Assembly: GCF_014205055.1 (NCBI RefSeq)
Contig: NZ_JACHMS010000001.1
Span: 5,518,001-5,582,000 of the forward strand
Length of the DNA stretch: 64,000 bases
From: Streptomyces luteogriseus
Lineage (GTDB): Bacteria; Actinomycetota; Actinomycetes; Streptomycetales; Streptomycetaceae
Direction: 5' to 3'
This document shows positions 2,049-5,728 of the stretch, one piece after another. The first letter of the stretch is position 1, and each line of letters begins with the position of its first letter. Below the pieces are notes generated by a model. The model was not told the origin of the DNA, ran no database searches, and was given only the letters and a program-made list of their open reading frames with translations. The position numbers and the translations under genes were made by a program.

Positions 2049-3866
2049 CTACTCCACCGTCACCGACTTGGCCAGGTTCCTCGGCTTGTCGATGTCGCGG
2101 CCGAGCGCCAGCGCCGTGTGGTAGGCGAGGAGTTGGAGGGGGATGCCCATCAGGATGGGGTCGAGTTCGTCCTCGTTCTTCGGGACGACGATCGTCTCGT
2201 CGGCCTTCTCCTGGGGCTGGTGGGCCACCGCGAGGATCCTGCCGCTGCGGGCCTTGATCTCCTCCATGGCGGCGCGGTTCTTCTCCAGCAGGTCGTCGTC
2301 GGGGACGATCGCGACCGTCGGGAGGGCCGGCTCGATCAGGGCCAGCGGGCCGTGCTTGAGCTCCGAGGCGGGGTAGGCCTCGGCGTGGATGTACGAGACC
2401 TCCTTGAGCTTCAGGGACGCCTCGCGGGCCACGGGGTAGCCCCGGACACGGCCGATGAAGAGCATCGAGCGAGCCTCGGCGAACTGGAGGGCCAGCTTCT
2501 TGACGTCCTCCTCGTGCTCCATGATCTCGGCGATCTGCGCGGGCAGCTTGCGCAGGCCCTCGATGATCCGCTTGCCGTCCCGGACCGACAGGTCACGGGT
2601 GCGGCCCAGGTGGAGGGCGAGGAGGGCGAAGGCCACCGTGGTGTTGGTGAAGCACTTGGTGGAGACGACGCAGACCTCGGGGCCCGCGTGCACGTAGATG
2701 CCGCCGTCGGCCTCGCGGGCGATCGCCGAGCCGACCACGTTCACCACGCCCAGGACCCGCGCGCCCTTGCGCTTCAGCTCCTGCACGGCGGCCAGGACGT
2801 CGTAGGTCTCGCCGGACTGGGAGACCGCGACGTAGAGGGTGTCGGGGTCGACGACCGCGTTGCGGTAGCGGAATTCCGAGGCCGGTTCGGCGTCGGCGGG
2901 GATGCGGGCCAGCTCCTCGATCATCTGGGCGCCGATCATGCCCGCGTGGTACGAGGTGCCGCAGCCGAGGATCTTCACGCGGCGGATCCGCCGGGCCTCG
3001 CGGGCGTCCAGGTTCAGGCCGCCCAGGTGCACGGTGGAGAAGCGGTCGTCGATGCGGCCGCGCAGCACGCGGTCCACGGCGTCGGCCTGCTCGTGGATCT
3101 CCTTGTGCATGTAGGTGTCGTGGCCGCCCATGTCGTAGGAGGCGGCCTCCCACTCGACCGTGGTGGGCTCCGCCGTGGTGCGGGTGCCCTCCGTGGTGTA
3201 GGTGCGGAAGTCGTCGGCCTTGAGGGTGGCCATCTCGCCGTCGTCGAGGGTGACGATCTGGCGGGTGTGGGCGACCAGGGCGGCGATGTCCGAGGCGACG
3301 AACATCTCCTTCTCGCCGATGCCGAGGACGACCGGGGAGCCGTTGCGGGCGACGACGATCCGGTCGGGGAAGTCGGCGTGCATGACGGCGATGCCGTACG
3401 TGCCCTCGACGAGCCGGAGGGTCTCGCGGACCTTGTCCTCCAGCTTGGGCGCCTGCGCGCGGGCGATGAGGTGGGTGAGGACCTCGGTGTCGGTCTCGGA
3501 GAGGAACTCGACGCCGTCCGCCTCCAGCTTGCGGCGCAGGTCGGAGGCGTTGTCGATGATGCCGTTGTGCACGACGGCGACCTTGTTGTCGGCCGACATG
3601 TGCGGGTGGGCGTTGACGTCGGACGGGGCGCCGTGGGTGGCCCAGCGGGTGTGGGCGATGCCGGTCGTGCCCTTGAAGCGGGCCGGGACCTTGGCCTCCA
3701 GGTCGCGCACGCGGCCCTTGGCCTTGACCATCTTCAGGCCGGACGTCTTCGGGGACGTGACGACGATGCCCGCGGAGTCGTAGCCGCGGTACTCCAGCCG
3801 CTGGAGGCCCTCCAGGAGGAGGGGCGCGACGTCACGCTTCCCGATGTAACCGACGATTCCGCACAT
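2049..3866 (-). CDS. glmS: Glutamine--fructose-6-phosphate aminotransferase (isomerizing)
   Basis: A 605-residue enzyme making glucosamine-6-phosphate from fructose-6-phosphate and glutamine, the first step toward UDP-GlcNAc for cell wall. The N-terminus MCGIVGYIGKR exposes Cys2, the nucleophile of the class II glutaminase domain (to about residue 215). Two SIS sugar-isomerase domains follow, with GCGTSYHAGM near residue 300 and SQSGETYDVL; the C-terminus KSVTVE is the family ending. The ATG at 3866 is fixed by Cys2. It follows the small gene at 3879-4136 by 12 bases and may be cotranscribed. No glmS ribozyme was seen upstream, as expected for actinobacteria. Confidence 0.97.
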   Translation of the reverse strand: MCGIVGYIGKRDVAPLLLEGLQRLEYRGYDSAGIVVTSPKTSGLKMVKAKGRVRDLEAKVPARFKGTTGIAHTRWATHGAPSDVNAHPHMSADNKVAVVHNGIIDNASDLRRKLEADGVEFLSETDTEVLTHLIARAQAPKLEDKVRETLRLVEGTYGIAVMHADFPDRIVVARNGSPVVLGIGEKEMFVASDIAALVAHTRQIVTLDDGEMATLKADDFRTYTTEGTRTTAEPTTVEWEAASYDMGGHDTYMHKEIHEQADAVDRVLRGRIDDRFSTVHLGGLNLDAREARRIRRVKILGCGTSYHAGMIGAQMIEELARIPADAEPASEFRYRNAVVDPDTLYVAVSQSGETYDVLAAVQELKRKGARVLGVVNVVGSAIAREADGGIYVHAGPEVCVVSTKCFTNTTVAFALLALHLGRTRDLSVRDGKRIIEGLRKLPAQIAEIMEHEEDVKKLALQFAEARSMLFIGRVRGYPVAREASLKLKEVSYIHAEAYPASELKHGPLALIEPALPTVAIVPDDDLLEKNRAAMEEIKARSGRILAVAHQPQEKADETIVVPKNEDELDPILMGIPLQLLAYHTALALGRDIDKPRNLAKSVTVE

Positions 3867-3878
3867 GTATACGTATTC

Positions 3879-4136
3879 CTAGCCGTAGACGATGCGCCGC
3901 AGCTGCCGGAGCGAGAGCTCAGGCGGGGCCACCGCGCGGTATTTGAGGTCCGCCTCGATCCGCTCGAAGATCGCCGCGTTGACCAGGCCCTGGGCCTGGA
4001 GCTCGCGGTGGCGGCGACGGACGTACTCCTCGGTCGTCTCGTCGAAGTAGGCGAGCACGTCCTGGATCACACGCAGCGCCTCACCCCGCCCGAGGGCGGT
4101 GGACCGCGTCAGATGATCAACGAGTTCGTCGTGCAC
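3879..4136 (-). CDS. Small conserved-looking protein upstream of glmS
   Basis: An 85-residue, highly charged, probably all-helical cytoplasmic protein (MHDELVDHLTRSTALGRGEA... to LRQLRRIVYG). It starts at a GTG (4134-4136) and stops 12 bases before glmS, suggesting cotranscription and possibly a role tied to GlmS. Family not recognised. Codon use is typical of the host. A palindrome at 4179-4194 lies about 45 bases upstream and could control both genes. Confidence 0.7.
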   Translation of the reverse strand: MHDELVDHLTRSTALGRGEALRVIQDVLAYFDETTEEYVRRRHRELQAQGLVNAAIFERIEADLKYRAVAPPELSLRQLRRIVYG

Positions 4137-4178
4137 TCGCTAGATCCTGGGGTACCGGCGACGCTTTCGCAAGAATTC

Positions 4179-4194
4179 TGCCCGATTTCGGGCA
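4179..4194. promoter_or_regulatory. Perfect 16-bp palindrome upstream of the glmS unit
   Basis: TGCCCGATTTCGGGCA has perfect 7-base arms around TT. It sits 43-58 bases upstream of the GTG of the small gene before glmS, where an operator is expected. The cognate regulator is unknown. Confidence 0.35.
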
Positions 4195-4416
4195 AGCGCC
4201 TGAAGGGATCCCTTGGGTCAGCTACCACGCCCTCGCCAACAACAGCCTCCTGCTCGGCCGGAACCCGGCCTTCCACCTGCACGCCGGCGACATCGCGTAT
4301 CAACGGCCACAACCACCAGTACGAGCGCACCGACGTGATCAAGGGGAACAAGGTCACCAAGAAGCTCCCGATCGGCGGCACGACCTACCCCGAGACCGGA
4401 CGGACCCAAACCCCTG

Positions 4417-4608
4417 CACGTACGGGAATGGACCTGCCCCGCCTGCGGCGCCCTCCACGACCGCGACCACAACGCCGCGATCAACGTCAAACAGGCCGCC
4501 GGACTGGCGGCATCGGCCTGCGGAGCGCCGGTAAGACCGGGACTCGTCCCGGCACAGCGCGAAGAAACAGGAAGCCATGGAACCCCCACCCGAACCTGTG
4601 CCGCGTAG
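4417..4608 (+). pseudogene. C-terminal fragment of an IS200/IS605-family TnpB
   Basis: Sixty-three codons ending in TAG read [20 protein letters not shown] and then [16 protein letters not shown]. This is the last CxxC of the TnpB zinc finger followed by the RuvC-III motif DRDHNAAIN. The rest of TnpB is absent, so this is a fossil. TnpB proteins are RNA-guided nucleases whose guide RNA comes from the 3' end of the gene and the element's right end, both of which survive here. Confidence 0.85.
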
Positions 4609-4659
4609 CGACACAGGTTCGGGTGGGGGCGGCCAGAATCCTCGGGCTTCAGCCCGAGG
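4583..4659 (+). repeat. IS200/IS605-type right-end hairpins (possible omega-RNA scaffold)
   Basis: Two hairpins flank the end of the TnpB fragment. The first has an 18-bp perfect stem (4583-4600 with 4612-4629) whose 11-base loop contains the tnpB stop codon. The second is CCTCGGGCT-TC-AGCCCGAGG (4640-4659), typical of IS605-family right ends. The element probably ends within GCATGTCAA just after, since phosphatase-like coding resumes at about 4671. Confidence 0.65.
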
Positions 4660-4815
4660 AGCATGTCAACTCGACTACTCCTTCCTGCGCTGCGCGTGGA
4701 CGTCACCCCCGCGCCGAAGGGGCGCCTGGCCACGCTCACGGTGCGCGGCATCGCCGAGACCGGTGACCAGGTGGACCACTTCACGGTGGCGCGCCGGGCG
4801 AAGTAGCCGCGGGCG

Positions 4816-5697
4816 CTACATCCGCTTGAGGATCGCCTGCTTGGCCAGGGCGAACTCCTCGTCCGTCAGCACGCCCGCGCGGTGCAGCTCACCGAGCTCG
4901 CGCAGGCGGCGCAGCAGGGCGTCGTGATCGTCCTCGGCGGACGCGACCGGAGCAGAAGGCAACTCCGGTCGCGCGTCCACGATGTCGGCGGTGGCCCGGG
5001 CCGGGTGCGGAAGCCTGGCCTGGACCGCCGCCGCGACCAGCGCCATCAGCGGGTCCTTCTTGAAGCCCCACAGCTCCACGGCGTTGGGGTCGTACTTGGG
5101 CGGGGCCTTGGTGGGCGCGTGCCGCACGGTGAAGCGCAGGTGGCCGTTCTCCAGACCGGCCGCCGGGTGCCACTCCACGCCCGTGATGTCGGCGAGCGCG
5201 AGCGTGCGGGCGCCGGCGGCGGCCTTGGCGTCCTCCGTCTTCCAGTTCCACTCCAGGCGTATGCGCTCGCCGTCGAAACCGGCGGTGCCGTCCCCTGCGG
5301 AGACCGACAGGGGGACCGAGGGGCCCGGCAGCAGATACGCGTCGACCGGGCCGGCCGGGACCTGGTCGAGGAGCAGGGCGCTGCGGACCTCGTCCACGAC
5401 GTACTCGGCGACGCCGAAACGGTCGGGCTCCACCACTAGCTGGTACGGGTCGTGGGGCTCGGTGAGCCGCCCGCCCGTGGCCTGCAGCAGGGGGTCGGCA
5501 CCGTCGCGCAGCCGGAGCCGGAGCCGCCCCGACTTCTTGCCCTGCTCCAGGGAGATACCCGCCAACGACCCCAGCGGTACGACCAGTTCACCCAACTCCT
5601 TGCGCAGCAGACTGACGTTCTTGTCCCGTCCGGGAGTCAGCCGCAGCGCGTCCCCGTCGAAGGCCCACGTGCCGTCCTTCTGGATGATTTCCGCCAT
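4816..5697 (-). CDS. DUF4429 protein with C-terminal SHOCT domain
   Basis: A 293-residue soluble protein beginning MAEIIQKDGTWAFDGDALRL, a typical DUF4429 start; two such beta-rich modules appear to cover about residues 5-85 and 130-235. The C-terminal 35 residues (LLRRLRELGELHRAGVLTDEEFALAKQAILKRM) form a SHOCT helical hairpin, thought to mediate oligomerisation or membrane association. The ATG at 5697 was preferred over farther upstream frames because the domain begins exactly there. It is divergent from the hexosaminidase with 79 bases between. Cellular role unknown. Confidence 0.85.
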   Translation of the reverse strand: MAEIIQKDGTWAFDGDALRLTPGRDKNVSLLRKELGELVVPLGSLAGISLEQGKKSGRLRLRLRDGADPLLQATGGRLTEPHDPYQLVVEPDRFGVAEYVVDEVRSALLLDQVPAGPVDAYLLPGPSVPLSVSAGDGTAGFDGERIRLEWNWKTEDAKAAAGARTLALADITGVEWHPAAGLENGHLRFTVRHAPTKAPPKYDPNAVELWGFKKDPLMALVAAAVQARLPHPARATADIVDARPELPSAPVASAEDDHDALLRRLRELGELHRAGVLTDEEFALAKQAILKRM

Positions 5698-5728
5698 GGG
5701 GTGGATTGTTCCACCCGTCTCACGAGAG

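What the first reader, a model, noticed from the sequence alone, without database searches (positions are those of the whole stretch)
4208..4806. TnpB tail and right-end hairpins fossilised inside a broken purple acid phosphatase gene
The last 63 codons of TnpB and both right-end hairpins, one an 18-bp perfect stem enclosing the stop codon, survive while the rest of TnpB is lost. The flanks are phosphatase fragments with an internal deletion and two frameshifts. The surviving part is what would encode a TnpB guide-RNA scaffold, so a stand-alone guide RNA usable by another TnpB is conceivable.
Basis: partly seen in the sequence, partly recalled or inferred. Interest (0 to 1): 0.5.

Follow-up and report, generated by a model that had tools for sequence, protein, structure and literature searches.

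The report
Broken TnpB transposon end with rewritten hairpin
A dead Streptomyces gene holds the tail of a TnpB jumping element, an ordinary leftover with no matching partner protein found in the genome, but its striking perfect hairpin seems to have been rewritten in one step by a DNA-copying slip, which also appears to have happened to other members of this element family.

Summary
Window 4399-4608 encodes the last 69 codons and stop of a TnpB. An 18-bp perfect stem (4583-4600/4612-4629) encloses the stop, a second hairpin lies at 4640-4659, and the element ends at TCAA (4669). Around it are three fragments of a purple acid phosphatase that relatives keep in the same slot. Streptomyces cahuitamycinicus (G099) carries the element at the same site, nearly full length but frameshifted; a 97% identical copy with an open tnpB frame lies elsewhere in S. 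massasporeus. In the window, deletions removed the left end and most of tnpB.

The stand-alone guide RNA is not supported: the three right ends of this family found here lack a TnpB gene, the three open TnpB genes found have no such right end, and motif-flanked guide targets are at chance level.

The perfect stem is derived: of seven window-only changes, six, within 13 nt, all restore pairing with the unchanged other arm. Among 95 related right ends the longest stem is bimodal (16 bp or more in 9, at most 12 in 86), without a clear link to TnpB integrity. Three of the 9, and none of the 86, have an inverted hairpin core. This points to recurrent template switching. The fossil is ordinary; the rewriting is modestly interesting.

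The parts
4217..4299 (+). purple acid phosphatase fragment 1 (residues about 202-229); the gene start is deleted
   Evidence: tblastn with the intact gene from G197; blastn junctions
4299..4398 (+). phosphatase fragment 2 (residues about 395-427), joined to fragment 1 across a 497-bp deletion
4398..4403 (.). deletion junction: phosphatase joined to the TnpB tail; part of the phosphatase, the transposon left end and the tnpB 5' part lost (about 1.36 kb in G099 coordinates)
   Evidence: comparison with G099 contig L039
4399..4608 (+). last 69 codons and stop of tnpB (zinc ribbon and RuvC-III DRDHN motif; motif names recalled)
4537..4552 (+). small stem of the predicted right-end (omega) RNA scaffold, with changes on both sides in the family
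   Evidence: alignment A2, columns 19-34
4583..4629 (+). 18-bp perfect hairpin around the stop codon; 3' arm 4617-4629 rewritten compared with the element in S. cahuitamycinicus and S. massasporeus
4640..4659 (+). terminal hairpin of the right end, covarying in the family
4666..4669 (+). TCAA, last bases of the element
   Evidence: conserved end in A2; followed at once by the phosphatase sequence that follows GCTAC in the empty site
4670..4685 (+). stretch that would be the 16-nt guide; it is phosphatase sequence
   Evidence: 16-nt guide length from PMC8612924 (passages)
4670..4806 (+). phosphatase fragment 3 (C-terminus, stop at 4804-4806) with a 5-bp duplication that shifts the frame

Best explanation
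It is a decayed tnpB-carrying element of the IS200/IS605 kind. The element sat 3' of a GCTAC site in a phosphatase gene, at the same position as in S. cahuitamycinicus (shown by the matching junctions; whether through common descent, exchange of the locus or homing is open). Deletions then destroyed the phosphatase and most of tnpB, leaving 272 bp of element (shown). A single template-switch (quasipalindrome-correction) event copied the 5' arm of the right-end hairpin onto its 3' arm and made the 18-bp perfect stem (the derived pattern is shown; the mechanism is inferred). The remnant most likely has no present function (inferred): its right-end RNA, if transcribed at all, has no matching TnpB that I could find in this genome.
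For: Same site in G099, with tnpB matching an intact TnpB at 78% and 66% identity in two frames. G099's left flank stops and the window's right flank starts at the same place of the intact gene, GTGCGCTAC|CTCGAC, to within one ambiguous C. The phosphatase without insert lies in the same slot in G197 (read as an open gene) and in seven other fetched relatives by blastn layout. A third copy, 97% identical to G099's over 1,244 bp, is open over the part of tnpB held, at another locus in S. massasporeus. Three-way comparison: window-only changes are 4450 and six at 4617-4629, all six making Watson-Crick pairs; window stem 18/18 pairs, G099 12/18; 0 of 400,000 simulations with 7 random changes reached 18/18. 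Longest stem in 95 right ends: 9 at 16 or more, the other 86 at most 12 (whole right end; similar). Inverted core in 3 of the 9 and 0 of the other 86; arm homogenisation with spacer inversion is what PMC8604942 says template switching does (abstract, in the listings).
Against: No transcript data. The remnant is more alike between window and G099 than most nearby genes: 0 of 44 fourfold sites in the tail differ, against 38 of 355 in glmS and 27 of 171 in the gene downstream. That is what selection would give. Just upstream (3401-4136) the figure is 5 of 147, but it is low for G197 (9 of 142) and G268 (13 of 140) too, so it does not prove a recent exchange with G099. I lean on the element's youth, because the S. 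massasporeus copy at another locus differs from the window at only 3 places outside the stem changes; this is an argument, not a test. Gene conversion from an unseen copy with that stem could mimic template switching. One frameshift in a draft contig (G099) may be a sequencing error.
Confidence: 0.85

Rival explanations
1. Stand-alone guide RNA: the remnant is still transcribed and its scaffold loads another TnpB, guided to intact phosphatase alleles.
For: The whole right-end scaffold is present and scores 179.7 bits with the family model (the window is one of the 24 rows that built the model). Relatives carry the matching target after GCTAC. In ISDra2 the stem called 3b can be removed without loss of activity (PMC10097598, passages), so, if the stems correspond, a rewritten stem need not kill the scaffold. 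The tail's fourfold sites are unchanged between window and G099.
Against: No TnpB of the family found in the genome. With the motif YTAC plus 16 bases of guide and up to 3 mismatches, 4 places were found against 6 for the reversed control pattern; one is this locus, and only one keeps CTAC, with 3 mismatches in the 16. The phosphatase paralogue keeps GCTAC but differs at 5 of the 16. tnpB's own 5' region is gone. No sigma-70-like promoter at 3800-5000, but shuffles give only 0.1, so this says little.
Confidence: 0.04
2. Exapted terminator: the strong hairpin stops minus-strand transcription from the DUF4429/SHOCT gene before glmS, and is kept for that.
For: It lies between the minus-strand gene 4816-5703 and the minus-strand genes 3879-4136 and glmS. 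The minus-strand fold is -50.8 kcal/mol, z -9.9. In G099 a deletion brings the right end directly against the end of that gene. Two other TnpB-free right ends of this genome sit 10 nt behind stop codons of GH43 genes.
Against: The scan gave 1 terminator-like site against 0.8 expected, and it is not the 18-bp stem. The site is known in two genomes only, and G099 lacks the perfect stem. The two GH43 loci look like one duplicated copy (96% identical proteins).
Confidence: 0.12
3. The perfect stem was selected at RNA level by step-by-step compensatory change rather than made by one template switch.
For: Stems of the family covary.
Against: Six changes in 13 nt, all on one arm, with the other arm unchanged in three copies; no stems between 12 and 16 in 95; inverted cores only among the long stems.
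Confidence: 0.1

Closest known systems
IS200/IS605-superfamily elements carrying tnpB (IS1341-type where tnpB is alone; label recalled)
   Same: TnpB with PF01385 and PF07282 in the G099 copy, right end overlapping the tnpB 3' end, terminal hairpin, TCAA end, insertion 3' of a short motif
   Different: decayed to the right 272 bp, no left end; a tnpA was not searched for by family
ISDra2 right-end RNA (reRNA/omega RNA; PMC8612924 and PMC10097598, passages)
   Same: RNA scaffold from the tnpB 3' end and right end, guide taken from the flank
   Different: other sequence; site here GCTAC, not TTGAT; no TnpB partner found; stem perfected
Quasipalindrome correction by template switching (PMC8794818 abstract and outline; PMC8604942 and PMC7202029 abstracts in listings)
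   Same: one arm rewritten as the exact complement of the other; spacer inversion in three relatives
   Different: seen here in the right-end hairpin of a TnpB element, by comparison and not by experiment

Membership tests
TnpB / IS200-IS605 element | TnpB zinc-ribbon/RuvC-III tail in the remnant | tested here: met
   PF07282 over cut-off, 36.2 bits against 26.3; 89% identity to an intact TnpB tail
TnpB / IS200-IS605 element | right end with structured RNA shared with fuller elements | tested here: met
   24-row alignment; 20 of 43 pairs with changes on both sides, 0 of 500 shuffles as high; the count of further pair types was reached by 26 of 500 (rows are related and the window is included)
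TnpB / IS200-IS605 element | insertion 3' of a short conserved motif | tested here: met
   of 14 relatives whose left end aligned from its first 25 bases, 11 have GCTAC and 1 GTTAC directly before it; GCTAC|CTCGAC in the intact gene, GCCAC in G099
TnpB / IS200-IS605 element | complete element | tested here: not met
   left end and tnpB 5' part absent
functional omega (guide) RNA | cognate TnpB in the genome | tested here: not met
   three open PF07282 genes found, none with a right end of this family; the genome-wide model search scored 150 of 8,530 first-look candidates
functional omega (guide) RNA | transcribed and processed RNA | not testable with these tools
   no expression data
functional omega (guide) RNA | target next to the motif in the genome | tested here: not met
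   motif plus 16 nt, up to 3 mismatches: 4 places, control 6; no exact motif-flanked target. First 20 bases alone: 8 places, one exact, itself; none preceded by CTAC or TTAC
template-switch (quasipalindrome) mutation | clustered derived changes that all make the arms complementary | tested here: met
   six of seven window-only changes; 18/18 pairs against 12/18
template-switch (quasipalindrome) mutation | spacer inversion | tested here: inconclusive
   not in the window copy; in 3 of 9 long-stem right ends and 0 of 86 others, two of the three probably one lineage

The most novel reading that the evidence does not exclude
In this Streptomyces TnpB family the right-end (guide RNA scaffold) hairpin is a hot spot where single template-switch events rewrite a whole arm, in either direction and in up to seven lineages, including five elements with an open tnpB frame. 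Guide-RNA stems would then evolve by jumps rather than by paired point changes, perhaps promoted by the single-stranded stage of this kind of transposition.
Probability: 0.6. Interest if true: 0.45.

Novelty: new member of a known kind. Interest (0 to 1): 0.27.

Why it matters
As a fossil it matters little: right ends with a broken or missing TnpB made up 28 of the 95 examined (crude classes). What may matter is a polarised example, backed by a bimodal pattern in the family, of a guide-RNA scaffold stem being rebuilt in one mutational step. That is a caution for reading covariation in such RNAs as proof of selection.

Tried and rejected
Selection on the remnant: fourfold sites in the tail are unchanged between window and G099 (0 of 44). 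I first read a stretch of low divergence as an exchange tract with G099; a recount along glmS did not bear that out, since only 3401-4136 is low (5 of 147) and it is low for G197 and G268 too. G099 is not clearly closer to the window than G197 or G268 over the neighbouring genes.

Link between TnpB loss and perfect stems: 16 bp or more in 5 of 65 intact, 2 of 26 broken, 2 of 2 TnpB-free and 0 of 2 contig-edge right ends (classes, stems). Three of the four without intact TnpB share a GH43-type flank, so no link is claimed. Rows used: 49 of the 73 sources with a match (its other three sources, L050-L052, had none) and 46 of 47, so 95 of 120; dropped were L174, right ends cut at a contig end, and distant or short subfamilies. 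They were chosen by similarity to the window or its model, so the frequency is not unbiased. 'Intact' means a stop-to-stop frame of at least 355 codons holding the RuvC-III motif, a crude test. The fixed offset undercounted L089; one search repeats the count on whole right ends.

Rfam: matches far below the gathering scores only. The lists were cut to at most 15 rows and the library lacks most subscription journals. Stand-alone omega RNAs for IscB are recalled from Altae-Tran 2021, not read.

Full report
What is there. Window 4208-4806 holds three fragments of a purple acid phosphatase gene in different reading frames, with 272 bp of a TnpB element between the second and third. The element part is the last 69 tnpB codons (4399-4605), stop TAG at 4606-4608, and the right end to TCAA at 4669. 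The 18-bp stem (4583-4600 with 4612-4629) and the terminal hairpin (4640-4659) are real, and the long stem is far beyond shuffles. The genome has 8.7 Mb; that it is a Streptomyces is inferred from its nearest named hits.

Where it came from. In the same slot, between glmS with its small neighbour gene and a DUF4429/SHOCT gene (the name glmS is recalled), relatives carry the phosphatase: G197's is an open gene (Pur_ac_phosph_N and Metallophos), and seven more fetched relatives show the same blastn layout. One relative, G099, has the element at the same site and nearly complete; its contig has the length of the Streptomyces cahuitamycinicus 13K301 contig that holds the same hairpin arm. Its left flank ends at GTGCGCCAC, followed by a left end like that of other copies; its tnpB reads in two frames; and the phosphatase sequence to its right is deleted right up to the element's end. 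The window's right flank starts where G099's left flank stops. A third copy, 97% identical to G099's over 1,244 bp and open over the part of tnpB held, lies at another locus in S. massasporeus JCM 4139. In the window, a deletion of about 1.36 kb (G099 coordinates) joined the phosphatase to the TnpB tail, 497 bp are missing inside the phosphatase, about 690 bp including the gene start are missing on the left, and a 5-bp duplication shifts the frame on the right. Of 392 genus members searched, 69 had strong matches to the 418-bp query, three of them (G009, G124, G268) through the phosphatase flank only. Of 95 right ends examined, only the window's continues into the phosphatase.

Is it a guide RNA? 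The remnant contains the whole predicted scaffold (family model). But the three right ends of the family found in this genome have no tnpB beside them apart from the window's tail, and the three open TnpB genes found have no right end of this family. The flank that would serve as guide is phosphatase sequence. With a YTAC motif plus 16 bases and up to three mismatches, the genome gives four places against six for the reversed control: one is this locus, and only one keeps CTAC, with three mismatches in the 16. With the first 20 bases alone, eight places lie within three mismatches, the only exact one is this locus, and none is preceded by CTAC or TTAC. A phosphatase paralogue, 56% identical, keeps GCTAC but differs at 5 of the next 16 bases. 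Expression was not testable.

Why the stem is perfect. Against the two sister copies the window has seven changes of its own in 272 bp: position 4450 and six at 4617, 4618, 4619, 4621, 4626 and 4629. All six create Watson-Crick pairs with an unchanged 5' arm and take the stem from 12 to 18 of 18 pairs; 400,000 trials of random substitution never did this. Ordinary right ends of the family keep an internal loop there: the pairs at columns 75-77 with 100-102 fail in 17 to 21 of 24 sequences. In 95 right ends (of 120 with a model match; see Tried and rejected), 9 have an uninterrupted stem of 16 bp or more and the other 86 have at most 12. By comparison with the usual letters of the family, the 5' arm looks rewritten in L068 and L131 and the 3' arm in the window. 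The core GCGTAGC appears inverted (GCTACGC or a near variant) in three right ends, all among the nine. Arm homogenisation with spacer inversion is what template switching between inverted repeats does according to PMC8604942 (abstract in listings), and PMC8794818 (abstract and outline) reports that the process can create and maintain RNA hairpins. The mechanism is inferred, not observed. Long stems occur with open tnpB frames (5 of 65) as well as without (4 of 28). In ISDra2 stem 3b can be removed without harm (PMC10097598, passages); that it corresponds to part of this stem is my inference.

Other roles. A terminator role is possible but unproven: the minus-strand fold is very strong and the remnant lies between minus-strand genes, yet the terminator scan is at chance. 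The remnant is more alike between window and G099 (0 of 44 fourfold sites differ) than glmS (38 of 355) or the gene downstream (27 of 171). Just upstream the figure is also low (5 of 147), but not for G099 alone. The S. massasporeus copy at another locus is as close to the window (3 differences outside the six stem changes) as the G099 copy (4), which suggests a young, mobile element; selection is not excluded.

Verdict. An ordinary transposon fossil, with a well-polarised case of a right-end hairpin rewritten in what looks like one step.

Noticed in passing
L048 (own genome about 678.8 kb) and L049 (own genome about 6,201 kb): Two further TnpB-free right ends of this family with 21- and 16-bp perfect stems, each 10 nt behind the stop codon of one of two 96% identical GH43-CBM6 genes; G193 (L032) has a truncated TnpB at what looks like the same flank. 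Possibly a right end duplicated together with a gene as its 3' hairpin.
   Followed up: partly
L039:5960-5970: In S. cahuitamycinicus the flank next to the right end is deleted exactly up to the element's TCAA, and the neighbouring DUF4429/SHOCT gene now ends with a stop codon supplied by the transposon end.
   Followed up: partly
window 3401-4136: Fourfold sites differ little from relatives here (5 of 147 to G099, 9 of 142 to G197, 13 of 140 to G268), while the gene downstream has 27 of 171 to G099. Unexplained.
   Followed up: partly
L173, L088, L032: Hairpin core inverted (GCTACGC-like instead of GCGTAGC), which also removes the usual tnpB stop codon from the loop.
   Followed up: partly
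G000:C1:2597354-2598934: A second, open purple acid phosphatase-like gene (56% identical to the G197 gene), so loss of the window copy may be buffered.
   Followed up: no
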